NCBI RefSeq assembly: GCF_018842675.1
Contig: NZ_JAGTWO010000002.1
Coordinates: 224,841-288,840 of the forward strand
Source of the DNA: Candidatus Pantoea bituminis
GTDB taxonomy: Bacteria; Pseudomonadota; Gammaproteobacteria; Enterobacterales; Enterobacteriaceae
Length of the DNA stretch: 64,000 nt
Direction of reading: 5' to 3'
Shown: piece by piece, positions 42,350-52,811 of the stretch
How positions within the stretch are numbered: the first letter of the stretch is position 1
How the letters are laid out: every line of letters starts with the position of its first letter
Position numbers and translations under genes: made by a program
Notes under the pieces: generated by a model
What the model was told of the DNA's origin: nothing
Databases searched by the model: none
What the model saw: the letters and a program-made list of their open reading frames with translations, nothing else

Positions 42350-43190
42350 CTACCGGGCTATAGACTCTGATGGCATCTGATAATTCAGGGCTGAATGTGG
42401 ACGACACCCGTTTTAATCCTTCCGCCAGTCATTAGTGATTTTTATGGCGTAAACAATATCGCTGCACGCGTGATCATTCAGGCATTCATCGCAAAAGCGA
42501 CCGTTAAAACTCGCAATAAATTCGTTCTGCGTTGGCTTGCCCGGCTAGATTAAACGCAGCTCCACGCCATGCTCAAAGGTCCGTTGATCCAGCGCACGAC
42601 AAGTAAATTCCGTCCTCTGGTCGGTTCTTATCGTCGCCGAATAGCTTTGAGACAGTGTAATGCTCATGATACGTGAACGTCTGAAATCCCGAAAGCGGCG
42701 GTGATCGTCAGGCATTCCTTCGTAAAATGATCCACACAGGTCAGGCGCTTAATCCAGCGGCTGCTGGCGAGTGCATCCATGATAAAATCCATCGATCCGG
42801 CCAGATTCGGAGCATTAGGGCGCAGAAGCGGAATTTGCTCTGTCGCCAGCCCGTTACGGCGGCGTCTGCGTTTTACGACCAGGTCGTTAACATGATAAAT
42901 GCGGTATACCTGACTGTGATTGACGTGAATTCCCTCTCGACGCAGTAGCTGCCATATGCGCCGGTAACCAAAATGTCGACGTTCAGGCGCCAGTTCAGTG
43001 ATGCTAACAGACCAGCGGGCGTTAGTAGCCGGACGTTGAGCCTCATAGCGGAAGGTTGACAGTAGTAAATCTGTCAGCCTGCAGATGACGTTGCGACAGA
43101 CCCGTTGCCTCACACATGACTTCTACGGTTTCCCTCTTCTGATCTGTCGTCAGAACTTTCGGCCCGGAGTTACCTGATGCGCCTCCTTAT
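42350..43190 (-). mobile_element. Decayed IS3-family (IS407-like group) element
   Basis: The clearest part is 42664-43113, which reads ERRHFGYRRIWQLLRREGIH, GLATEQIPLLRPNAPN, MDFIMDALASSRWIKRLTC and ECLTITAAFGIS, the N-terminal half of an orfB transposase. Further weak matches extend to both sides (an FNGRFRDECL-like segment near 42490). Stops and gaps are frequent and orfA is missing. It separates the dicarboxylate operon from the replication region. Confidence 0.72.
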
Positions 43191-43199
43191 CCGATCCAG

Positions 43200-43660
43200 T
43201 CAACTGGCTGTAGAAAGTTTTTGCCTCTGTCGGCTTGTATCTGTATCACCTGTCTTTCATATTCTCTGAAAATATCGACACACCATCGAGCATAGTATTC
43301 AACAGTTTTACATCCGGTCGCATTGCTATCAACCTGCTCACTACTTTGCCAATCAAACAATAGTTAACTGGTGGCAGAGCCTGTTGGGGCATGACAGTTA
43401 AGTCTACTGATATTTGCGCTGGATGTGACGGAAAGAAACAGAGTGCAGTTCCAGATGTTTGGTCTAAAAGACTTTCTAATGCTGAGGCAAGTAAATAGCG
43501 TGTAAACCGTTACCTCACAATGTGGCTTCTAAGCCGATGTGTCATAGTTGCCATTTTATTAACGTCGATCTGCGAAATTCTAAAATGGTGAGCGTCCTAT
43601 CGTTTACTGTAGGGTAGCGAGGCTTTGAACAAGCCGACAGGCGCGGCAGGCTTTCTTTAT
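43200..43660. other. Unassigned stretch between IS relic and origin
   Basis: There are no supported genes. It contains stops in all frames and no clear repeats other than the beginning of the GATC cluster that follows. Confidence 0.4.
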
Positions 43661-43678
43661 CAACATATCTACAGGGTA

Positions 43679-43740
43679 GATCAATTCTTTGAAGATCATT
43701 AGAAGATCAATATGAGATCATTAGAAGATCCAAAGAGATC
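43679..43740. other. Origin: phased GATC cluster
   Basis: Six GATC sites start at 43679, 43694, 43705, 43716, 43727 and 43737, spaced 10-15 bp. The unit AGATCATTAGAAGATC occurs twice, 22 bp apart. An AT-rich run follows (TTATATATATATG). This is the layout of an unwinding region with Dam/SeqA control in iteron plasmids. Confidence 0.7.
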
Positions 43741-43785
43741 ACTAATGTTATATATATATGATTTAAAAGATAAAATTACTACTTT

Positions 43786-43910
43786 GGGTATTCACTTTCA
43801 TGAGGAAGGCATCCACTTTCATGATAAAGGTATTCACTTACATGAAAAGAGGATTTACTTTCATGTAAAAGGTCTCTACTTTCATGAGAAAAAGGTATTC
43901 ACTTTCATGA
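43786..43910 (+). repeat. Six upstream iterons of the replication origin
   Basis: The consensus GGTATTCACTTTCATGA recurs at about 43787, 43808, 43829, 43851, 43871 and 43894. The spacing is 20-23 bp, that is about two helical turns. The copies vary by a few bases. They lie between the AT-rich GATC region and repA, as expected for initiator binding sites. Confidence 0.88.
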
Positions 43911-43935
43911 TAAATGAGTTTTGCTGGCCTGAGGG

Positions 43936-43944
43936 TGTGGATAA
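43936..43944 (-). promoter_or_regulatory. Perfect DnaA box at the repA start
   Basis: TGTGGATAA is the exact complement of TTATCCACA. It sits between the GAGGG ribosome site (43931-43935) and the GTG start at 43945. Confidence 0.7.
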
Positions 43945-44829
43945 GTGGCAAAAGACAGTGCAATCATCGACATAAGCAATCCCTTTGCGATTGTCAGAAA
44001 GGATTCAGAAACAGTTTATCTACTGGAACCAAACAGCAATAAGACCGTTCAGCCGGTTGCTTTGCTGCGACTTAGCGTTTTTACACCTGTCGCACCGCGC
44101 GAGAAGGGAAAGCGCGATTTTATGATCGACGCTTCAGATGAGCTTTCAAGCCTTGAAGTTGCTCAGCGTGAAGGGTATACGAATATTAAAATTCAAGGAG
44201 CTAAGCTCAGTATGTCTACGGATTTTAAGACGTGGCTGGGCATCATCATGGCTTTTTCCACCTATGGCTACAGTAACGAAACGATCCGCCTTCCGTTTAC
44301 GGAGTTTGCAAAGATGTGCGGCATTAAATCTGCCGATTTAAACATCCGCTCGCGCAAGCGCCTGCATGATTCTCTGTTCAACATTTCCAGTGTCACGCTC
44401 GCTTTCAGCAGCAAAGACGGTAAGAAATCCATGTTCTCGCATCTTGTGCAGCGCGCTGTGCTGAACATGAATACCGATACGGTGGAGATCACCGCGGACA
44501 GCAACCTCTGGGAGCTCTACCGTTATGATCATAAGGTTTTGCTGGGCCTTAAAGCGCTGTCAGAGCTCTCTAGGAAGGAGGCTGCGCAGTCATTGTACAT
44601 CTACTTCGAAAGCATGCCTCCCGGCACGTTGTACATCTCAATGAAGCGTCTGCGTGAGCGTCTCGCTTTAGGATCGCCCGTTAAACTGCAGAACTCGATC
44701 ATTCGGCGCGCGATGACCGATCTCAAAAAGATAGGCTACATCGACTTTATTGAACTTAAGAAAGGTCGAGAGATTCAGTTCGTCATTAATAGTCGCTCAC
44801 CTAAGCTCCAGCCGTTACCCGGTCACTAA
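43945..44829 (+). CDS. repA: Replication initiator protein, Rep_3 superfamily
   Basis: The protein is 294 residues from GTG 43945 and consists of two winged-helix domains typical of iteron-plasmid initiators. Seen are LLRLSVFTPVAP, TWLGIIMAFSTYGYSNETI, KRLHDSLFNISSVTLAFSS in the first domain, and SMKRLRERLALGSPVKLQN, RRAMTDLKKIGYIDFIEL in the second. It binds the flanking iterons and opens the origin, and probably represses its own promoter through the upstream iterons. The nearest known relatives are RepFIB-like initiators of large enterobacterial (Pantoea-type) plasmids, by recollection of family sequence. Confidence 0.86.
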   Translation: MAKDSAIIDISNPFAIVRKDSETVYLLEPNSNKTVQPVALLRLSVFTPVAPREKGKRDFMIDASDELSSLEVAQREGYTNIKIQGAKLSMSTDFKTWLGIIMAFSTYGYSNETIRLPFTEFAKMCGIKSADLNIRSRKRLHDSLFNISSVTLAFSSKDGKKSMFSHLVQRAVLNMNTDTVEITADSNLWELYRYDHKVLLGLKALSELSRKEAAQSLYIYFESMPPGTLYISMKRLRERLALGSPVKLQNSIIRRAMTDLKKIGYIDFIELKKGREIQFVINSRSPKLQPLPGH

Positions 44830-45061
44830 GGTATTCACTTTCATGAAAGAGGCAATACGGTCTCTGCTTTCATGAAAGCATCTTAGTAAAGGTCTCCACT
44901 TTCATGTAACCAAGCTTCGGGGGTATCTGTTTCCATGTCTTACCTGGAAAGTATCCAATTTTTTGCATAAATACCTTCCTTCTGAGTTCATCTGCCCGTA
45001 CATGCATTTGAAAGGGTTCTACTTTCATGAAGGGGACTGCCGAAAGGTATTCACTTTCATG
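44830..45061 (+). repeat. Downstream iterons, direct orientation
   Basis: Copies begin at 44830 (perfect), 44859, 44891, about 44922 (degenerate), 45014 and 45046. The spacing is irregular. Such arrays downstream of the initiator gene usually serve copy-number control and incompatibility. Confidence 0.78.
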
Positions 45062-45088
45062 CAAACCTCATATTTCTGGTCGCTCGTA

Positions 45089-45199
45089 CAGGAAAGTAGA
45101 GACCATACCTCCAGTACAGTCAACATTGTTCATGAAAGTGAATACCGTTAAGCCCTCAGAATAACGTTTCTTATGCCAGACATTATGAAAGTGAATACC
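45089..45199 (-). repeat. Downstream iterons, inverted orientation
   Basis: Inverted copies are CAGGAAAGTAGAGACC at 45089-45104, CATGAAAGTGAATACC at 45131-45146, and TATGAAAGTGAATACC at 45184-45199. Together with the direct copies this gives head-to-head arrays. Confidence 0.75.
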
Positions 45200-45438
45200 T
45201 TCATAGAAAATTAGGTGTGTAAGTATACGCCATCATTATGTGCATTATTTTTATAAACTAGTGTGATTCTTAAGGCGAGCTGAATCAGCACTCATGCACG
45301 GCCAGGCCTGGAATGCTCGGTGCTCATTTCGTTGCGCTCTATCTTAATTTACTTCCGCGCATTGCGCGATATCGCAATAGCGCCGCTAAGGGTTAATTGA
45401 CTGGCTATAGTGAACGATTTTCGTGCTCAGTATCGTCT

Positions 45439-45454
45439 CATGAAAGTGAATACC
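45439..45454 (-). repeat. Isolated inverted iteron
   Basis: CATGAAAGTGAATACC is a perfect inverted match to the consensus. It lies 240 bp from the main group. Confidence 0.7.
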
Positions 45455-45579
45455 TTTCTGGACATGTTACCTGATAGTCACTTATTCCGGTTGAATATCT
45501 GTCTTTAGATGAGCGTAATGTCCCTTTCACCATGGTAGAGGAGGCTCAAATTTCCTGCAGAATTCAAACAGCGTTGCCA

Positions 45580-45900
45580 TCTGAATATGAGAGATCATGT
45601 GACTTCTGTTTCTTAACAGTCTGCGCCGTGATGTCCGTGCAGCCCGACTCGGTCGTGCCCTGTCCGTGTGCGCCATGGACATGATCTGCACCGACCATTA
45701 ATTACTAGCACTTAAGGCTACCGCCCTGTTCCACTAGTTTGCTGACTCGACGCAGCACGACTTCATCTACACGTTGTGAAACGCCGGCGAGCGGCTCAAT
45801 GAAGTACTAGCGCTGCGTTGGTGGGATTTCCGGCTCAACGGTGTAACTTTGCACGTGGTGATACGTACCGCCAAGTAGCGCCGATCTTAGCCTGTTTTCC
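45580..45900 (+). pseudogene. Tyrosine recombinase (ResD-like) relic
   Basis: Fragments read SLRRDVRAARLGRALSVCAM and, further on, NAGERLNEVLALRWWDFRLN, where GERLNE-LAL carries the first catalytic Arg of the tyrosine recombinase family. The pieces lie in one broad reading direction but several stops interrupt them. Plasmids of this type often carry a multimer-resolving recombinase next to repA, so this is probably its remains. The catalytic C-terminal part is missing. Confidence 0.5.
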
Positions 45901-46126
45901 AGAAGCTATTTTTCAGGATTTTCACTCATGAACCTGTACAGCATTCTTTTCTTGGAATAACTCGCTGCTGGGCCTGTGAACATCACAGCAATAAATGTAT
46001 GCCGGAATCATCAAATATTCGTAATATCCGGTATTTACAGAATTACGATTATAAGTTTATACGACTTTACTCTTTTGCGATTATGTGACATTGTTCCTTA
46101 AAGTCGCATTTACGCTTTTAAGTTTA
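45901..46126. other. Unassigned AT-rich stretch before the partition remnant
   Basis: No gene is seen. Sequence homologous to ParF begins only at about 46127 (KLARSAI), so a rearrangement boundary lies near here. Confidence 0.45.
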
Positions 46127-46485
46127 ACAAACTTGCTCGTTCTGCAATTATGGCAGCCGATCTAGTTTTAATTCCCGTCCAGCCGAGTCCTTATGATGTA
46201 TGGGCGGCTGAAGAAGTTGTAAACCTAATTAGCGAAGCCAGAATATATAAAGAAACCCTTAAATCTGTATTTGTGGTTAATCGTAAAATTACAAATACGG
46301 CAATTGGTCGCGATGTTGTGGAAGCCTTGGCAACGTATAAGACACGGGTACTGAATAATACTGTCTCTCAGCGGGTAGTGTTTGCTGAGGCTGCGGGTCA
46401 GGGTAAGGCAGTGCTTGAGCTGGGTGAATCCTCTGCAGCTAATGAAATTAAAGCGCTGGTTAAAGAAATACTGGAGATCGAATAA
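46127..46485 (+). pseudogene. parF: 5'-truncated ParF/ParA partition ATPase
   Basis: The reading LARSAIMAADLVLIPVQPSP, then NRKITNTAIGRDVVEAL and a normal C-terminus, match the last ~115 residues of small (type Ib) partition ATPases of about 210 residues. The N-terminal half with the deviant Walker A (KGGxGKT) and Walker A' motifs is absent, so the product cannot bind ATP as a ParF. The open frame starts at ATG 46150. It overlaps parG by a few bases, so the pair structure is preserved. Confidence 0.7.
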
Positions 46486-46721
46486 TGACAGGTAAAAAAG
46501 TGAACTTTTCGCGCAGGGCTGAAAGAACCGTTTCGGCTGATGCCTGGGTTGAAAATCGTGAACCGCCTTCAGAACAGCCAGAGCAGGAAAAAATGAAGCG
46601 CCTGACCATTGACGTAACGGAGAGCCTGCACAAGGCCATTAAGTCAACCTGTGCAAGCCGTGGCACCAAGATTGCTGATGAGGTCAGGGAACTTCTTCGG
46701 GAAAAGTATCAGCCTGACTAA
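46485..46721 (+). CDS. parG: ParG-like ribbon-helix-helix partition protein
   Basis: This 78-residue protein has a basic, flexible N-terminus followed by RLTIDVTESLHKAIKSTCAS and GTKIADEVRELLREKY, a ribbon-helix-helix dimerisation and DNA-binding fold. ParG proteins bind centromere and operator sites and stimulate ParF. It overlaps the truncated parF end. A repeat array that could hold its binding site begins just after its stop. Confidence 0.75.
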   Translation: MTGKKVNFSRRAERTVSADAWVENREPPSEQPEQEKMKRLTIDVTESLHKAIKSTCASRGTKIADEVRELLREKYQPD

Positions 46722-46730
46722 TTTGATGTT

Positions 46731-48290
46731 ACATCGTTTTGACGTAAATAAAGAAAAGTAGAAATGCGATAAAACAGAAACACAGAAGCACAAATACCTT
46801 CGGTTTGTGCTTTTGCTTACTGTCGGGAACTCAGAGAAACGAATGTTGTATGATGGCTATAAAATCTCGTGCATTATCTGCTGTACCCTTTCAAAGCATG
46901 GATAGCAAGCCACAATGTACTGTGTCCAGGTAGGCCTAATTTATGCGTCAGACAAATAAATCCAGTGATATCGTATTAACGTAAATGCAGAAATACGTAA
47001 TCACAGGCACTTGCAACCTTTACTGAAACCCAATTTGCGGTAAATCATAAAACCGCTGCCAGTATCTCTCGTAAAATCTGCCTCAGCTTCTCAACCTCTT
47101 GGCTAGCGGACCACAACAGTATCACTGTCCGGATAGCTCTGGGTTAAGTATCAGCCATGAATTAAAAGTAAAATCGCATAAACGTAAATACAGAAATAAA
47201 GAAAAGCGATTATGCAAAACAAAGATGTAAAGATTCTTGCGACTTATGCAGCTATTTTATTGGGGCGATCAGCAAATGTGTCGTATAAACCGGCAACGGA
47301 TTCCTGTCATGAGCCACGATGTCCTGACGTTGACCGCAGTCGGGCGTGTTTGATTCTAAATAGCGCAGCGCAGAGTATAAGACAGCAGAGCCAATTTTAT
47401 CGTAAAAACAGAAATGCGATTATACAGAAAGAAGGAACGCTTAGACTTGCGGCTTGTTTAAGCATTCTTCAGTGTAGATTACAGAACATGTTGTATAAGG
47501 CAGGGCCAATATCTCGCGTTTTATCAGTCTTGACTTTTAAAAGTTTGGCCACAGTCATAATGTATCAATGCCCAGTTTCCTGTGACATATATACCAGCCG
47601 GATTAATTTATAAAAAATCGTATTAACGTAAATGCAGAAAAAAGAAACATAGATGTTTGAGGCTTGCGTAACTGTTCTCCTGTTTAATCACAGAGCGCGT
47701 TGTACACGGGGTTAATAGTATGCGTTTTATCAGTCATAGCTTTTCAAAAACCTGACCACAGGCAAAACACACCTTTGTCCAGCTTGCTCAGGTATAAGTG
47801 CCAGCTGAGCATTTTCAAACCGCATCGCATAGACGTAAATGCAGAAAAACAGAAATACGATAATGCAGAAAAGATAACGTACCGGCATTGCGGCTTGGGC
47901 TGGTATTTTTTTGGCGATTAACAGATGTGTCGTGTAAACCGGCAACAGAGTTAACCTGTCATGAGCCATGGTTTTCCAACGATCAGGTCGGCAAATCAGG
48001 GAGCTAAATAGAAGTCGCGTAGGGACAAATACCGGACAGCCAGTTACACTATATCGTTTTAACGCAAATACAGAAAAAAGAAAAACGATTATACAGAAAT
48101 GAAGAAATGCAGAAGATAGAACCTAAGCTTCAACCTTACTTTCAGTACATCAACGAAACGCGTCATGTAAGGCAGCGATAATTTCTCGCGTTTCATCTGC
48201 CATGGTTTCTCGATACCCTGACCGACAAACCACAACGTCCCTCTGCCAGCTTTGTTAAGTCTGCCCATAATACGCATCAGCGCCTCGCTG
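46731..48290. repeat. Seven-unit array of about 220-bp degenerate repeats
   Basis: Each unit starts with an A-rich element close to ATCGTATTAACGTAAATGCAGAAA. These lie at about 46731, 46969, 47172, 47398, 47616, 47823 and 48051, spaced 203-238 bp. The rest of each unit aligns by eye with the 3' end of the adjacent umuC relic (for instance CTCGCGTTTTATCAGTCATGG and CCTGACCACAGGCAAAACACA). No long frame is conserved. The array may be a partition site, a by-product of repeated umuC tail duplication, or both. Confidence 0.75.
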
Positions 48291-48780
48291 TTAGCCTTTG
48301 GTTTTAACTTATCAAACAGGCCTAACTGCGCGACGCTACTATTATAAAAATTGTCCAGCCTAATACCTGCCTTCACGTATCGCGGAGCGTCAGCCCACAT
48401 TTGTTAAAAAACAGATATGGCCATCTTAATGATCTCTCTGGTGTCATTTGTAGGGATCTGACATTTTGCTGATCCATGAGGGGGCCAATATTCCCCGCTT
48501 TAGTCATATCCATTGGTGCGAAAAAAACGATAAACTGTCCAGCAATACTGCTTTTCTCCGTGGAGCTTTTCAGCGGCACGTTCGGCAAAAACGCACAGTA
48601 ATTGACGAACTTCATCCTTACTCGTGACTTTAGTCCCGTAAGATAGGCTGCACACGATTTGCTGCTTGTTTGACGGAATTTCCTCTAGCTTCAGGCAGCA
48701 TTCTCCCCGTAGCTCTCTGACGCTGCGCTCCAGAACAACGTTCAAATTCTTGCGGATGAAAACTCTGTTAACCGCTTGTA
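48089..48780 (-). pseudogene. umuC: umuC relic, C-terminal part only
   Basis: Fragments in shifting frames read VLERSVRELRGECCLKLEEI, FAERAAEKLHGEKQYC, AGIRLDNFYNSSVAQLGLFD, ANSEALMRIMGRLN, TLWFVGQGIEKPWQMKRE and LSLPYMTRFVDVLKVR. All belong to the little-finger and C-terminal part of the error-prone polymerase V subunit. The N-terminal catalytic palm is missing and frameshifts occur near 48400 and 48600. It is not functional as a polymerase. Its tail is repeated to the left in the array. Confidence 0.75.
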
Positions 48781-49280
48781 TAATTTACAGAAGCGTGAGT
48801 TACGTTTACTTTCAGCGTTAGCTGGCGTCAGCCATTGTGGTTTCTGGGCTTTACGGCTCGGGAGCGGACAGCGGATATCAACGCTCCCTGCATCAGCAGT
48901 AGGCCGGGCATTCACTGGTCATAAAAGACGTGGCTGCTAGGAACCGAACGGTTTTACCCGTCCATGGAGAAGGCATTTTCATCTCCTGTTGCCTTGTTTC
49001 GTTCTCAGTAAACTTTCGCCGTGCAGAAACCAAGCATATGTGCGGTCTCGCGAAAGTCTCAGAGCTAAACGTCCGCCCCCGGCGTCTTACGGGCTGCAGT
49101 TTTGCGCTTTTTTCCTGAGTGCTGATCATCTATGAGAACGGAAAACGTTACATCTAGCGCGCAAGATATCCGCCGTCCTGTTATTAGGCCTTCAGTGAAT
49201 ATCGTTTACCGGGATCCGCTTAATTGCTAAACTGAATACAGATTTTCGCCGTATTCAGGCATACAAACAGGATTACGAAC
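48781..49280. other. Unassigned spacer before ietA
   Basis: No supported gene; short frames on both strands lack family resemblance. It should contain the promoter of the ietAS operon. Confidence 0.45.
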
Positions 49281-50317
49281 GTGGCAAGCGCAGACCAGCT
49301 AAAGGCACTGATTAAATCGCACATAAGCCGCGATGATAGTCACTTTTATTCAGTGGCTATGCAGGTCGCTGCGCATGAAGCCAGACAGGGCCACGGCCGG
49401 CTTGCGGAAGAACTCCTGAGCATGCTGGATAAAGGTAAGGCGAAGCTTGCCGCTGATAAAGGTGGGAAACTTGTCCCACTGTCGAATGCCGCGAAGTCCC
49501 GCACTGAGCTGGGTAACTTGTTAAGCGTCAGTGAACCCGATGATCGTATTGCTGATATGGTGCTCAGTAATTCAGCCGAAGCACAGTTGAACCGACTTGT
49601 TCGTGAACAGCGTATGATGACACGTATCCGTGAACATGGTCTTTCTCCTCGTCGTAAAGTACTGCTGGTGGGGCCTCCCGGAACGGGAAAAACCCTGACT
49701 GCTTCAGTGCTGGCGGGCGAGCTGGGCATTCCGCTGTTTCAGGTGCGTTTTGATGCCCTGATCACAAAATTTATGGGGAAACGGCCGCCAAGCTCCGTCA
49801 GATTTTTGATGCGATGGTCGATATCCGCGGCGTTTATTTTTTCGATGAGTTCGACGCTATCGGCTCGCAACGGGGACTGGCAAACGACGTCGGTGAGATC
49901 CGCCGCGTGTTGAATAGCTTTTTGCAGATGATCGAGCAGGATAACTCTAACAGCGTCATTGTTGCTGCAACGAACCATCCTGAGATCCTTGATTATGCTT
50001 TGTTCAGACGCTTTGATGATGTCGTTGAATATCACCTGCCCACATTGGATCAGGCGCTTGAGCTGCTGCGCACCAGGCTTGACGATTTCATTCCTAAGCC
50101 TTTCAGGAAAGCCGGGCTGGAAAAATTACTCGCCGGACTCAGTTACGCAGAAATCTGCCGCGCGGCAGATGAGTCGATGAAAGAAGCGCTAATGAGTGAC
50201 AAAAACAGCGTGGATCTGGTGCTGCTGGAAAATGCTCTACAGGAACGGCATCAGGTCAGCCAGAAGCTGATAAATAACGGAAATTATAAATTAAATCATG
50301 ACGGAACCAGCCGCTAA
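49281..50317 (+). pseudogene. ietA: IetA-like AAA+ ATPase, one-base frameshift
   Basis: This is the ATPase of an ATPase/subtilase pair. GTG 49281 follows AGGATTACGAAC. Walker A GPPGTGKT is at about residues 131-138. After the break come Walker B GVYFFDEFDAI, sensor 1 VIVAATNHPEILD, and the arginine finger segment FRRFDDVVEY. One G is missing in the G4 run at 49775-49778; adding it gives KFMGETAAKLRQIFDAM and a protein of about 346 residues. As read, the ATPase stops before Walker B. The gene overlaps the protease start by 20 bp. IetA of Agrobacterium pTiC58 is the antitoxin-like partner of IetS. Confidence 0.83.
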
Positions 50318-52811
50318 CCGACAACGCCACATTATTCTTCCCTGTACGTTTGTCAATGAACCGTTCAGAACGCCCTCAACAGGTGGTGGCTCTTCACCAC
50401 TCCTACCGGAACGAGATCGCCAGCAGCACGGCACCATGCTTATGGGCCATCTGCAGCAGGTCAAGGCCATTGCCGCGAAGGCGAAGTTAGTGCAAAACGC
50501 CGTTGGGCTTCAGAGCGGAGTCGGCATACAGGTAGAATTTGTCGGTCAGCCTGACATAGCACTGGCATTCGAAAGCTTGGGCTATGAGGTAGGTCGCGAT
50601 AAGGCAAAGCACATCGAACTCCTCAGCCTTCATGTCGATGAAAATATCACCTCGGCGAACGTCTTCATTCCCGATGGGAAAATTATCCATTTTGAAAATT
50701 ACCTGAATGACTATCTGACAGACCGGCGCCGCGCGGACAATGTTTCACTCGATCGGAAGGCGTTAGTCAATACGCTGTCGGCTATTCGGCTCTCAACAAT
50801 CCGCTCTCTGTGGACTGATGAACCGAATCTTTTGCCAGCCGATCCTGCTGAGGAATTCTGGTGGGAGGTATGGCTACCGGTGCGCGGAAACCGGGCGGCG
50901 GTATTTGAAGATTTCCGGGCTGTAATTGCTGCCTGTCAGTGCCGCGCAAGCGAGCATGCAGTTCCGTTCCCTGAACGGACCGTGACGTGGATGTATGGCT
51001 CTCAGAGCGCTTTCTCACAGTCAGCGCTTTTGCTTAACTGTGTGGCCGAGCTTCGCCGGGCAAAAGATACGGCGGAATTCTTTACCGGCTCAGGATTCGT
51101 CGAGCAGCGGCTCTGGGCCGATGATGCACTGGCACGTCTTCAGATCCCCGCAGAGGGAGAAGATGTGCCTTACGTGTGTCTGCTCGACTCCGGACTGAAC
51201 CGGGCACATCCGCTGCTGGCCCCGCTGGTGCATGAAAATGATATTCATACCGTCAGCGAAGCTTGGGGGACTGACGATCGCGTTAATCACGGTACAGGAC
51301 TTGCCGGTATTGCTTTGTATGGGGACATGTTTGAAACGCTAACTGGCCAGAGTGCACTGATCATTAATCATCGTCTTGAGTCAGTGAAACTTACTAGCGG
51401 GCAGGGTAATAATAGTGCGGGTGGCGCGCATGAGCATGCCTACCTCTTTAGCAATGCGGTCACGCGCCCTGAAATCCTGAATAACCGACGCCGGGTTTTC
51501 AGCTCAGCCGTTACGGCCACGGACTATCGCGATTTTGGCAGGCCCTCCGCATGGTCCTCAATGGTCGACTCGCTGGCTGCGGACTCTGGCTCAGAGCCAG
51601 CTTATCCGCGCCTTTTCGTTCTCTCAGCTGGTAATATTTTTGACCGCGATCACTGGAAGACGTATCCGGACAGCCTTTCGGTTAACCAGATCCACGATCC
51701 GGCGCAAGCCTGGAACGCGCTCACAGTCGGAGCCTGCACTCACAAAACGACAGTTAATGAAGCTGACTTCTGGCCACTTGCGACTGAGGGAGGTCTCAGC
51801 CCCTTCACCTCAACTTCAACGCTGTGGGACAATGTGTGGCCACTGAAGCCGGACGTGGTCTTTGAGGGCGGAAATGCCGCAGCCAACAGTGAATTTGCGG
51901 ATAACTTTGCGAGCCTTGAACTACTAACGACAGATGCCTATCACCATCGCCGACTGTTCTCCACCACCAATGCCACCAGCGCGGCTTCTGCGCTGGCGGC
52001 AAAAATGGCGGCACAGTTAATGGCGCAATTCCCGGATCTGCGACCAGAGACCATCCGTGCGCTGATAACGCACTCAGCCCGTTGGACCACTCGGATGCTT
52101 GAGATGTATCCACCTGCTAATCAGGGGGAATATGCGACCCTGATCCGGCATTGCGGCTGGGGCGTGCCTGATGCTGAACTGGCTATCTGGAGCAGGAGCA
52201 ACAGCCTGGCGCTAATAGAGGAAAGCAGTCTGTTCCCTTATCATCGCACCCGGGATGGGATCAAAACCCGGGAAATGAATCTTCATGCACTGCCGTGGCC
52301 GGCTGATGAGCTACTAGCCCTGCAGAACACGCCGGTGGAAATGCGCGTGACGCTGTCGTATTTCATTGAGCCTAATCCATCTGCCCGCGGCTCGGCGTCG
52401 AAATTCTATTATCCTTCGCACCGTCTGCGATTTGCCATGAAGCGACCAACCGAGCGGCTGGATGAATTCAGAACACGTATTAATGCGGCCGCAGAGACCG
52501 AAGAGGGCACTTCTGCCGTGTCGGGAAGCGACAGCAACTGGCTGCTCGGATCCCGTCAGCGTCACAAGGGCTCGCTGCACCAGGATATCTGGAGGGGCAC
52601 TTCTGCTGAGTTAGCTAATTGCGGCTACGTGGCCGTCTATCCTGGGCAGGGGTGGTGGAAAACCCGCCGGGCGCTAGAGCGCTATGATTCAGAGGCACAT
52701 TACAGCCTCATCGTCTCTATTCACTCACCGGGTACTGATATCGATCTGCTGACACCGGTCCAAATAAAAACCGATGCGCTGATCGCCAACAATATTGAGA
52801 TATCATCCTGA
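50298..52811 (+). CDS. ietS: IetS-like subtilisin-family (S8) serine protease
   Basis: This is an intact 837-residue protein. The catalytic Asp297 is in VCLLDSGLNRAHP, His331 in VNHGTGLAG, oxyanion Asn446 in LSAGNIFD, and Ser561 in NATSAASALAA, in the usual order (the common GTS is ATS here). The N-terminal ~290 residues include TGGGSSPLLPERDRQQHG, a conserved segment of this subgroup, and the C-terminal ~200 residues form an extra domain. No signal peptide is seen, so it acts in the cytoplasm. IetAS was described as a plasmid stability and incompatibility toxin-antitoxin pair, and homologues were later reported as anti-phage. Confidence 0.88.
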   Translation: MTEPAANRQRHIILPCTFVNEPFRTPSTGGGSSPLLPERDRQQHGTMLMGHLQQVKAIAAKAKLVQNAVGLQSGVGIQVEFVGQPDIALAFESLGYEVGRDKAKHIELLSLHVDENITSANVFIPDGKIIHFENYLNDYLTDRRRADNVSLDRKALVNTLSAIRLSTIRSLWTDEPNLLPADPAEEFWWEVWLPVRGNRAAVFEDFRAVIAACQCRASEHAVPFPERTVTWMYGSQSAFSQSALLLNCVAELRRAKDTAEFFTGSGFVEQRLWADDALARLQIPAEGEDVPYVCLLDSGLNRAHPLLAPLVHENDIHTVSEAWGTDDRVNHGTGLAGIALYGDMFETLTGQSALIINHRLESVKLTSGQGNNSAGGAHEHAYLFSNAVTRPEILNNRRRVFSSAVTATDYRDFGRPSAWSSMVDSLAADSGSEPAYPRLFVLSAGNIFDRDHWKTYPDSLSVNQIHDPAQAWNALTVGACTHKTTVNEADFWPLATEGGLSPFTSTSTLWDNVWPLKPDVVFEGGNAAANSEFADNFASLELLTTDAYHHRRLFSTTNATSAASALAAKMAAQLMAQFPDLRPETIRALITHSARWTTRMLEMYPPANQGEYATLIRHCGWGVPDAELAIWSRSNSLALIEESSLFPYHRTRDGIKTREMNLHALPWPADELLALQNTPVEMRVTLSYFIEPNPSARGSASKFYYPSHRLRFAMKRPTERLDEFRTRINAAAETEEGTSAVSGSDSNWLLGSRQRHKGSLHQDIWRGTSAELANCGYVAVYPGQGWWKTRRALERYDSEAHYSLIVSIHSPGTDIDLLTPVQIKTDALIANNIEISS

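What the first reader, a model, noticed from the sequence alone, without database searches (positions are those of the whole stretch)
46731..48290. Seven tandem 220-bp units built from the umuC tail
The region between parG and the umuC relic is not random. A-rich elements recur every 203-238 bp, and the sequence between them aligns with the last ~150 bp of umuC (antisense). The copies grow less similar away from umuC by eye. This suggests repeated duplication of a umuC-tail plus A-rich unit. The regular spacing and A-tracts also suit a bent-DNA partition site for the adjacent ParG protein. I know of no description of such an array.
Basis: partly seen in the sequence, partly recalled or inferred. 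Interest (0 to 1): 0.78.

Follow-up and report, generated by a model that had tools for sequence, protein, structure and literature searches.

The report
Amplified plasmid partition site array
Next to a plasmid's DNA-sorting gene parG lies a row of seven repeats that each carry what look like ParG docking boxes plus a scrap of a neighbouring repair gene, so a bacterial 'centromere' seems to have grown by tandem duplication, the boxes staying alike while the scraps decayed.

Summary
The array is real: seven units of 203-237 bp (46733-48290) between parG and a umuC relic, in one orientation. Each is an A-rich element plus a spacer descended from the antisense 3' end of umuC. The elements have an 8-bp periodicity (boxes such as TACAGAAA, TGCGATTA, AACGTAAA). 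Similar boxes flank parA/parG in other plasmids with related ParG: a motif learned from those alone picks out the array, and a profile of the elements finds parA-upstream or parG-downstream sites there (12 of 14 matches). Pantoea plasmid pJZ29-03 keeps a plausible starting layout: parA, parG, boxes, antisense umuC. Some unit ends resemble the parG tail, so the duplicated segment probably ran from parG across the site into umuC. Element cores are 86% identical between units, spacers 47%, which suggests selection on the boxes. parA has lost nearly its first half, apparently recently, and the contig carries another ParAB, so the array is probably orphaned now. No second array was found in 60 other congeneric or 393 other order-level genomes searched. 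Verdict: a tandemly amplified type Ib (ParG-type) centromere, a new variant of a known kind; ParG binding is inferred.

The parts
45729..45887 (+). relic of a tyrosine recombinase gene like the one upstream of parA in related plasmids (frame with stops)
   Evidence: tblastn with the JZ29 recombinase, 55% identity over 53 residues, stops inside; annotated gene in L046
46030..46130 (+). parA-upstream region with 8-bp periodicity (probable operator / original partition site)
   Evidence: 46034-46128 is 78% identical to L046 4260-4355; lag-8 z 4.2 over 45990-46140; box-in-phase count not above shuffles (121 of 300)
46150..46485 (+). parA remnant, 111 aa, lacking the N-terminal part with the deviant Walker A motif
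   Evidence: 284 bp of the JZ29 sequence absent; NF041546 match covers profile 97-203 of 203
46485..46721 (+). parG, 78 aa, ribbon-helix-helix centromere-binding protein
   Evidence: PF09274 above cut-off; 1p94 TP228 ParG, E 7e-4; 83% identical to JZ29 ParG
46733..46796 (+). element of unit 1: 8-bp boxes
46797..46969 (-). spacer 1: decayed umuC 3'-tail copy
   Evidence: z 7.3 against 21 umuC tails
46970..47009 (+). element of unit 2
47010..47172 (-). spacer 2: umuC-tail copy; 47138-47160 on the + strand resembles the parG 3' end
   Evidence: z 6.5; parG tail 3 of 1000 shuffles as good
47173..47230 (+). element of unit 3
47231..47397 (-). spacer 3: closest to spacer 6; umuC relation weak on its own
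   Evidence: unit 3-unit 6 z 14.4; z 2.3 to umuC
47398..47436 (+). element of unit 4 (first part of the core missing)
47437..47616 (-). spacer 4: umuC-tail copy; 47577-47609 on the + strand resembles the parG 3' end
   Evidence: z 15.3; parG tail 0 of 1000 shuffles
47617..47650 (+). element of unit 5 (core identical to unit 2, 24 of 24)
   Evidence: box-in-phase count not above shuffles (83 of 300)
47651..47823 (-). spacer 5: umuC-tail copy; 47783-47815 on the + strand resembles the parG 3' end weakly
   Evidence: z 11.1; parG tail 28 of 1000
47824..47876 (+). element of unit 6 (six boxes fit in one phase)
47877..48052 (-). spacer 6: umuC-tail copy
   Evidence: z 7.7
48053..48116 (+). element of unit 7 (two runs of boxes, one base out of phase)
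   Evidence: box-in-phase count not above shuffles (149 of 300)
48117..48290 (-). spacer 7 = 3' end of the umuC relic itself (DUF4113)
   Evidence: PF13438 E 9.6e-14 in ORF 48089-48400; z 73
48131..48799 (-). umuC relic (C-terminal half, with stops)
   Evidence: tblastn with JZ29 UmuC, 46% identity over residues 196-423

Best explanation
The array is a tandemly amplified partition site (centromere) of a type Ib, ParA/ParG plasmid partition locus. The starting layout was probably like that of Pantoea plasmid pJZ29-03: parA, parG, a short run of boxes just after parG, then the 3' end of an antisense umuC. A segment of about 220 bp, from the end of parG across the boxes into the last ~130 bp of umuC, was duplicated in tandem up to seven copies, perhaps partly in blocks of three units. 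Each unit offers 3-6 boxes of 8 bp in one phase (not all contiguous) on which ParG ribbon-helix-helix dimers would line up, as on parH of TP228 or the heptads of pSM19035. Selection kept the boxes; the gene scraps between them drifted. The array would have raised the number of ParG complexes per plasmid for capture by ParA. parA has since lost nearly its first half, so the array is probably orphaned, with ParG perhaps still binding it. SHOWN: the array, its umuC origin, the 8-bp periodicity, the sharing of boxes with parA/parG flanks of other plasmids, the parA truncation. INFERRED: ParG binding, the partition role, selection as the cause of box conservation, the order of events.
For: Periodicity: array elements have excess self-match at lag 8 (z 7.0, 0 of 500 shuffles), 16 (3.2) and 24 (4.2); spacers have none at lag 8 (475 of 500 shuffles as high); parA-upstream DNA has it in the window (z 4.2), JZ29 (3.4) and P. 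stewartii (4.0). Forward test: a 16-bp motif trained on parA-upstream and parG-downstream DNA of 7 other plasmids or genomes, none from the window, gives 26 positions of 10 bits or more in the array against a shuffle mean of 0.5; the rest of the window has 18, of which 6 lie upstream of parA. Reverse test: a profile of the seven elements, run over 14 other loci, gives 14 matches at E<=1 (8 of them at E<=0.1) in 9 of the 14 loci; 12 of 14 lie within 200 bp upstream of parA or 120 bp downstream of parG, about 5% of the sequence (best E 4.7e-5, right after parG in Serratia proteamaculans). Unit 3's element also matches JZ29's parG-downstream site by blastn, 28 bp, 89%, E 0.002. C2's ParAB region had no match. 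Layout parA-parG-umuC(antisense) in JZ29. Spacers from umuC. parG-tail similarity before the boxes, summed over six unit ends: 117 against 80.4 +/- 6.6 shuffled, maximum of 1000 = 108. Core identity 0.858, spacer 0.467, core higher in 15 of 15 pairs; shuffled cores 0.352. ParG pN 0.099, pS 0.849; parA remnant dN 0.075, dS 1.49 against JZ29. ParG belongs to the ParG family and matches TP228 ParG.
Against: No binding data. parA is truncated and no close intact ParA was found in the genome, so the locus probably cannot partition now. The parG-downstream sites of Serratia and JZ29 match the element profile on the opposite strand, so the elements are not a straight copy of such a site. Five of the 14 other loci (L124, L133's neighbours excepted: L136, L145, L150, L151 and L124) gave no profile match, though L124, L136, L145 and L150 encode ParG relatives. 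parG-tail similarity is clear only for units 2 and 4, weak in 5, absent in 1, 3 and 6. Box-in-phase counts are not above shuffles for u5 (83 of 300), u7 (149 of 300, phase slip) or the window's parA-upstream region (121 of 300). Upstream lag-8 signal is weak in three Serratia plasmids and G024 (73-182 of 500 shuffles as high) and mixed in six more distant loci (z 3.7, 2.1, 0.5, 1.7, 3.1, 1.7). No other plasmid or genome examined has an array. The motif seed, the box pattern and the element boundaries were chosen by hand after seeing the sequences; only the motif's training excluded the window.
Confidence: 0.74

Rival explanations
1. The boxes are ParG sites, but the amplification never mattered: slippage or unequal crossing-over multiplied an existing parG-downstream operator/partition site, and gene conversion or chance rather than selection for array function kept the cores alike.
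For: Only one genome searched has it; parA is broken; relatives have only a short box run after parG; similarity is not ordered by neighbourhood (adjacent-unit test p 0.58).
Against: Core identity 0.858 against 0.467 in spacers, higher in 15 of 15 pairs; conversion confined to 24-50 bp in each unit and sparing the spacers would be odd; parG and the parA remnant evolved under purifying selection.
Confidence: 0.2
2. The array is a site for another DNA-binding factor of the plasmid (replication initiator, recombinase or dimer-resolution system, or the ParB of C2).
For: A Rep3-type initiator (43945-44829) and a recombinase relic (45729-45887) lie nearby; in Serratia plasmids a palindrome built of related boxes lies downstream of parG.
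Against: The boxes recur at parA/parG flanks in plasmids of other genera and replicon types; the repeats near rep read differently (TCATGAAAGTGAATACC-like, by eye); no profile match in the C2 ParAB region.
Confidence: 0.04
3. Decaying junk: umuC-tail duplications with A-rich linkers that look alike by composition.
For: The umuC tail is indeed pseudogenic, and A-rich DNA aligns easily.
Against: Core identity far above shuffled cores (0.858 against 0.352); 0 matches of 10 bits or more in 14 overlapping A-rich 70-mers elsewhere in the window; 8-bp periodicity in elements but not spacers.
Confidence: 0.01
4. Tandem small-RNA or terminator units.
For: A hairpin-like stretch lies after element 1 (about 46786-46820, by eye).
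Against: No Rfam match at E<=1 in 45900-48900; 3 promoter-like and 0 terminator-like sites in 45900-48400, not above shuffles.
Confidence: 0.01

Closest known systems
parFGH of plasmid TP228 (type Ib; ParG and centromere parH)
   Same: ParG-family ribbon-helix-helix protein; centromere made of degenerate short boxes with AT-rich spacers (PMC7308502, passages) and further repeats between centromere and genes (PMC5016525, passages)
   Different: parH is upstream of parFG (PMC5389482, passages) and continuous (PMC5016525). Here seven separate box runs lie downstream of parG, ~220 bp apart, with gene scraps between. Box letters differ from the ACTC boxes of TP228 (recalled).
parS of pSM19035 (omega/delta system)
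   Same: RHH protein, contiguous short repeats in both orientations; at least four contiguous heptads needed for full ATPase activation; six parS sites on one plasmid (PMC9499535, passages)
   Different: 7-bp not 8-bp repeats; nothing in the passages read describes an equally spaced tandem array of units carrying gene tails
sopC of plasmid F
   Same: tandem centromere repeats downstream of the partition genes (twelve 43-bp repeats, PMC9178275, passages)
   Different: short, near-identical repeats (near-identity recalled) bound by an HTH ParB; here long diverged units with an RHH-type protein
parAG-umuC segment of Pantoea sp. JZ29 plasmid pJZ29-03 (L046)
   Same: same gene order, ParG 83% identical, boxes on both sides of parAG, antisense umuC next to parG
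   Different: no array: 148 bp between parG and an intact umuC; intact parA

Membership tests
type Ib (ParF/ParG-type) partition locus | small RHH centromere-binding protein of the ParG family | tested here: met
   PF09274 24.2 bits against cut-off 21.4; 1p94 ParG E 7e-4 over 40 residues
type Ib (ParF/ParG-type) partition locus | intact small Walker-type ParA encoded next to it | tested here: not met
   111-aa remnant lacking the first ~87-96 residues; other matches in the genome are distant, 26-47%. As it stands the locus is a damaged member.
type Ib (ParF/ParG-type) partition locus | centromere of short repeated boxes near the genes | tested here: met
   8-bp periodicity and boxes shared with related loci
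type Ib (ParF/ParG-type) partition locus | ParG binds the boxes and the site stabilises the plasmid | not testable with these tools
   needs footprinting and plasmid-retention assays
tandem centromere array (sopC-like) | several copies of the binding site in direct tandem | tested here: met
   seven elements in one orientation; that they are binding sites is inferred
umuC tandem duplication | spacers homologous to the umuC 3' end, one orientation | tested here: met
   6 of 7 spacers with 0 of 300 shuffles as good; u3 10 of 300
higher-order (three-unit) repeat | units three apart more alike than others | tested here: inconclusive
   permutation p 0.038 (periods 2 and 4: 0.74, 0.90); u4 is closest to u5

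The most novel reading that the evidence does not exclude
A bacterial plasmid centromere that evolved like a eukaryotic satellite: ~220-bp monomers, each with one cluster of boxes for the centromere-binding protein, multiplied in tandem (perhaps as three-unit higher-order repeats), the boxes held by selection while the rest of each monomer, scraps of the flanking parG and umuC genes, drifted to ~50% identity.
Probability: 0.45. Interest if true: 0.72.

Novelty: new variant of a known kind. Interest (0 to 1): 0.57.

Why it matters
It shows in sequence a route by which a plasmid centromere can grow: tandem duplication of a single site with bits of the neighbouring genes attached. It offers a natural series of diverged sites that separates box from filler. 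It also points to an 8-bp box code at the flanks of parAG in a ParG subfamily (clearest in Pantoea plasmids, also seen in Serratia, Pseudomonas syringae and some Aeromonas plasmids), which can be tested directly.

Tried and rejected
Small RNAs or terminators: no Rfam match, no excess of promoter or terminator patterns. Other copies: pattern search of the own genome; blastn of the plasmid collection (the listed records match parA/parG or umuC; 42 of the 82 records were not listed); 60 relatives by blastn (19 of 60 including the own genome; nearly all matches are the umuC tail, three short ones at query 879-921, 1238-1266 and 1353-1398 have E 0.0014-0.0063); element profile in 61 congeneric genomes including the own (own genome only) and 394 order-level genomes including the own (own genome with 7 matches, 14 others with one weak match each, E 5e-4 to 0.0097; none of those 14 loci of ~3 kb encodes ParG, ParA or UmuC). 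Both large profile searches used stricter filters that lose weak matches. Self-comparison of the 1.5 kb after parG in 7 plasmid loci showed no such array; the 6 more distant loci were looked at only over 200 bp on either side. A viral-contig scan with AACGTAAATRCAGAAA gave 67 stretches with one match each, taken as chance and not followed. ParG in the phage collection: one unannotated record, not followed. General decay with distance from umuC was rejected. In one search the profile (nhmmer) part failed on a wrong option and was not rerun; the result rests on local alignments with shuffles. A genome-contig scan for ParG returned 25 loci, mostly Bartonella, not used. Papers on such an array: searches listed none by title or start of abstract; Wu et al. 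2011 on parH is not held, so absence from print is not established.

Full report
OBSERVATION. Between parG (46485-46721) and a umuC relic (48131-48799, minus strand) lie seven units starting at 46733, 46970, 47173, 47398, 47617, 47824 and 48053, spaced 203-237 bp. Each has an A-rich element and a spacer. The 24-bp core has six matches in the window at up to 3 mismatches and none elsewhere in the 5.2-Mb genome at up to 2; unit 4 lacks the first part. All 21 unit pairs score above shuffles (z 3.3-14.4); with the first 65 bases removed, 11 of 21 pairs have 0 of 200 shuffles as good and 10 have 4-69.

SPACERS. Against 21 umuC 3' tails (18 from own-genome or same-genus loci, JZ29, two Rahnella plasmid loci; 20 of the 21 were found because they match the relic, which favours u7), the spacers score above shuffles on the expected strand: z 7.3, 6.5, 2.3, 15.3, 11.1, 7.7, 73 for units 1-7 (the nhmmer part of that script failed). 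Unit 3 is weak on its own but closest to unit 6. So the umuC origin holds, but there is no gradual decay away from umuC and no neighbour effect (permutation p 0.58). Units three apart are somewhat more alike (p 0.038), a hint of a three-unit block; u4 is an exception, closest to u5.

ANCESTRAL LAYOUT. Pantoea sp. JZ29 plasmid pJZ29-03 has parA, parG, 148 bp, then umuC and umuD on the other strand. The window keeps the order parA-parG-umuC, with the array in place of the 148 bp. DNA just before the boxes resembles the parG 3' end clearly in units 2 (3 of 1000 shuffles as good) and 4 (0 of 1000), weakly in 5 (28 of 1000), not in 1, 3 and 6; summed over six unit ends 117 against 80.4 +/- 6.6 (maximum of 1000: 108), and the sum falls to 92-77 when the window is slid. 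The duplicated segment was therefore probably the end of parG, the site, and the last ~130 bp of umuC.

THE ELEMENTS ARE PARTITION-TYPE BOXES. Read in steps of eight, unit 6's element becomes ATCGCATA GACGTAAA TGCAGAAA AACAGAAA TACGATAA TGCAGAAA. Self-match at lag 8 is strong in the elements (z 7.0, 0 of 500 shuffles) and absent in the spacers (475 of 500 shuffles as high). The same layout stands upstream of parA in JZ29 (TACGATTT TACAGTTA TACGCAAA TACGATTT ..., 10 boxes in phase, 0 of 300 shuffles), Serratia proteamaculans (5 and 5 boxes, 4 and 1 of 300) and Pseudomonas syringae (6 boxes, 0 of 300), and boxes follow parG in several plasmids. Lag-8 z upstream of parA is 3.4 and 4.0 in JZ29 and P. 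stewartii; in three Serratia plasmids lag 16 is the strong one (2.7-4.3) and lag 8 weak; G024 is weak. In six more distant loci lag-8 z is 3.7, 2.1, 0.5, 1.7, 3.1 and 1.7. Boxes in one phase exceed shuffles in units 1, 2, 3, 4 and 6 (0-8 of 300) but not in 5 (83) and 7 (149), nor in the window's parA-upstream region (121) (the box pattern was chosen by hand).

TWO CROSS TESTS. Forward: a 16-bp motif trained on parA-upstream and parG-downstream DNA of seven other plasmids or genomes, none from the window, gives 26 positions at 10 bits or more in the array against 0.5 in shuffles; the rest of the window has 18, of which 6 lie upstream of parA. It is a permissive model (242 effective sites) with a hand-chosen seed. 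Reverse: a sequence-only profile of the seven elements, run over the window and 14 other loci, gives 14 non-window matches at E<=1 (8 at E<=0.1) in 9 loci; 12 fall in the ~5% of sequence just upstream of parA or downstream of parG (one straddles the parG stop; binomial p 2.5e-14; related plasmids are not independent, so this is a guide). Two fall outside: inside parA of L149 and near the end of the ParG gene of L146. L124, L136, L145 and L150 encode ParG relatives but gave no match. The best parG-downstream matches are on the opposite strand. blastn also links unit 3's element with JZ29's parG-downstream site (28 bp, 89%, E 0.002, opposite strand). The ParAB region of the same contig (L151) has no match.

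CONSTRAINT. Cores are 0.858 identical between six units, spacers 0.467, core higher in 15 of 15 pairs; shuffled cores give 0.352. The simplest reading is selection on the boxes; gene conversion limited to the boxes is not excluded.

STATE OF THE LOCUS. ParG is intact and constrained (pN 0.099, pS 0.849 against JZ29). The 111-codon parA remnant is also constrained (dN 0.075, dS 1.49), yet 284 bp of the JZ29 sequence with the start and the Walker A part are missing, so the loss looks recent. The genome has no close intact ParA; other matches are 26-47% identical. The 288.8-kb contig carries a separate ParA/ParB pair and an ORF that reads like a replication protein by eye (no NCBIfam match). The array is best read as a partition site that worked until recently and is now orphaned, with ParG perhaps still binding it.

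KNOWN SYSTEMS. ParG aligns with TP228 ParG (1p94). Passages read in PMC5389482, PMC7308502 and PMC5016525 describe parH as degenerate boxes with AT-rich spacers, upstream of the genes, not curved; PMC9499535 describes pSM19035 heptads, at least four contiguous needed, six parS sites; PMC9178275 describes sopC as twelve 43-bp repeats. Repeated boxes and tandem centromeres are thus known. A ~220-bp tandem array downstream of parG with gene tails inside each unit was not seen in 60 other congeneric genomes or 393 other order-level genomes (profile, stricter filters) or in the plasmid collection by blastn, and no paper listed describes it by title or start of abstract. Novelty: new variant of a known kind.

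ORGANISM. This is inference.

On re-reading the calls I corrected the counts of genomes (own genome excluded), the extent of the parA loss, the description of box contiguity, the loci without a profile match, and added the failed nhmmer step and the mixed results.

Noticed in passing
49281-52811: AAA ATPase split over two overlapping ORFs (49281-49913, 49814-50317; looks frameshifted) followed by an S8 peptidase (50298-52811): matches to the IetA/IetS anti-phage defence pair (PADLOC IetA E 2.5e-33 and 3.3e-36, IetS E 4.7e-38).
   Followed up: partly
L134 3343-3382; L137 3380-3441; L138 3393-3430; L124 downstream of parG: A ~40-60 bp near-perfect palindrome (CTGTATTTAATGAAA ... TTTCATTAAATACAG-like) built of related boxes head to head, 100-190 bp after parG in Serratia and (by eye) Pantoea loci, with a tyrosine recombinase gene upstream of parA in several: a resolution site or a second partition site?
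   Followed up: no
43712-45480: Rep3-type initiator ORF (43945-44829) with TCATGAAAGTGAATACC-like repeats nearby, by eye: apparently a second replicon on a contig that has its own ParAB.
   Followed up: no
42664-43360: Transposase-like ORF fragments on the minus strand, by eye.
   Followed up: no
L047 3998-4309 and L048 3955-4278: Rahnella sikkimica plasmids carry umuC C-terminal sequence where no gene is listed, one near a RepB-type initiator.
   Followed up: no
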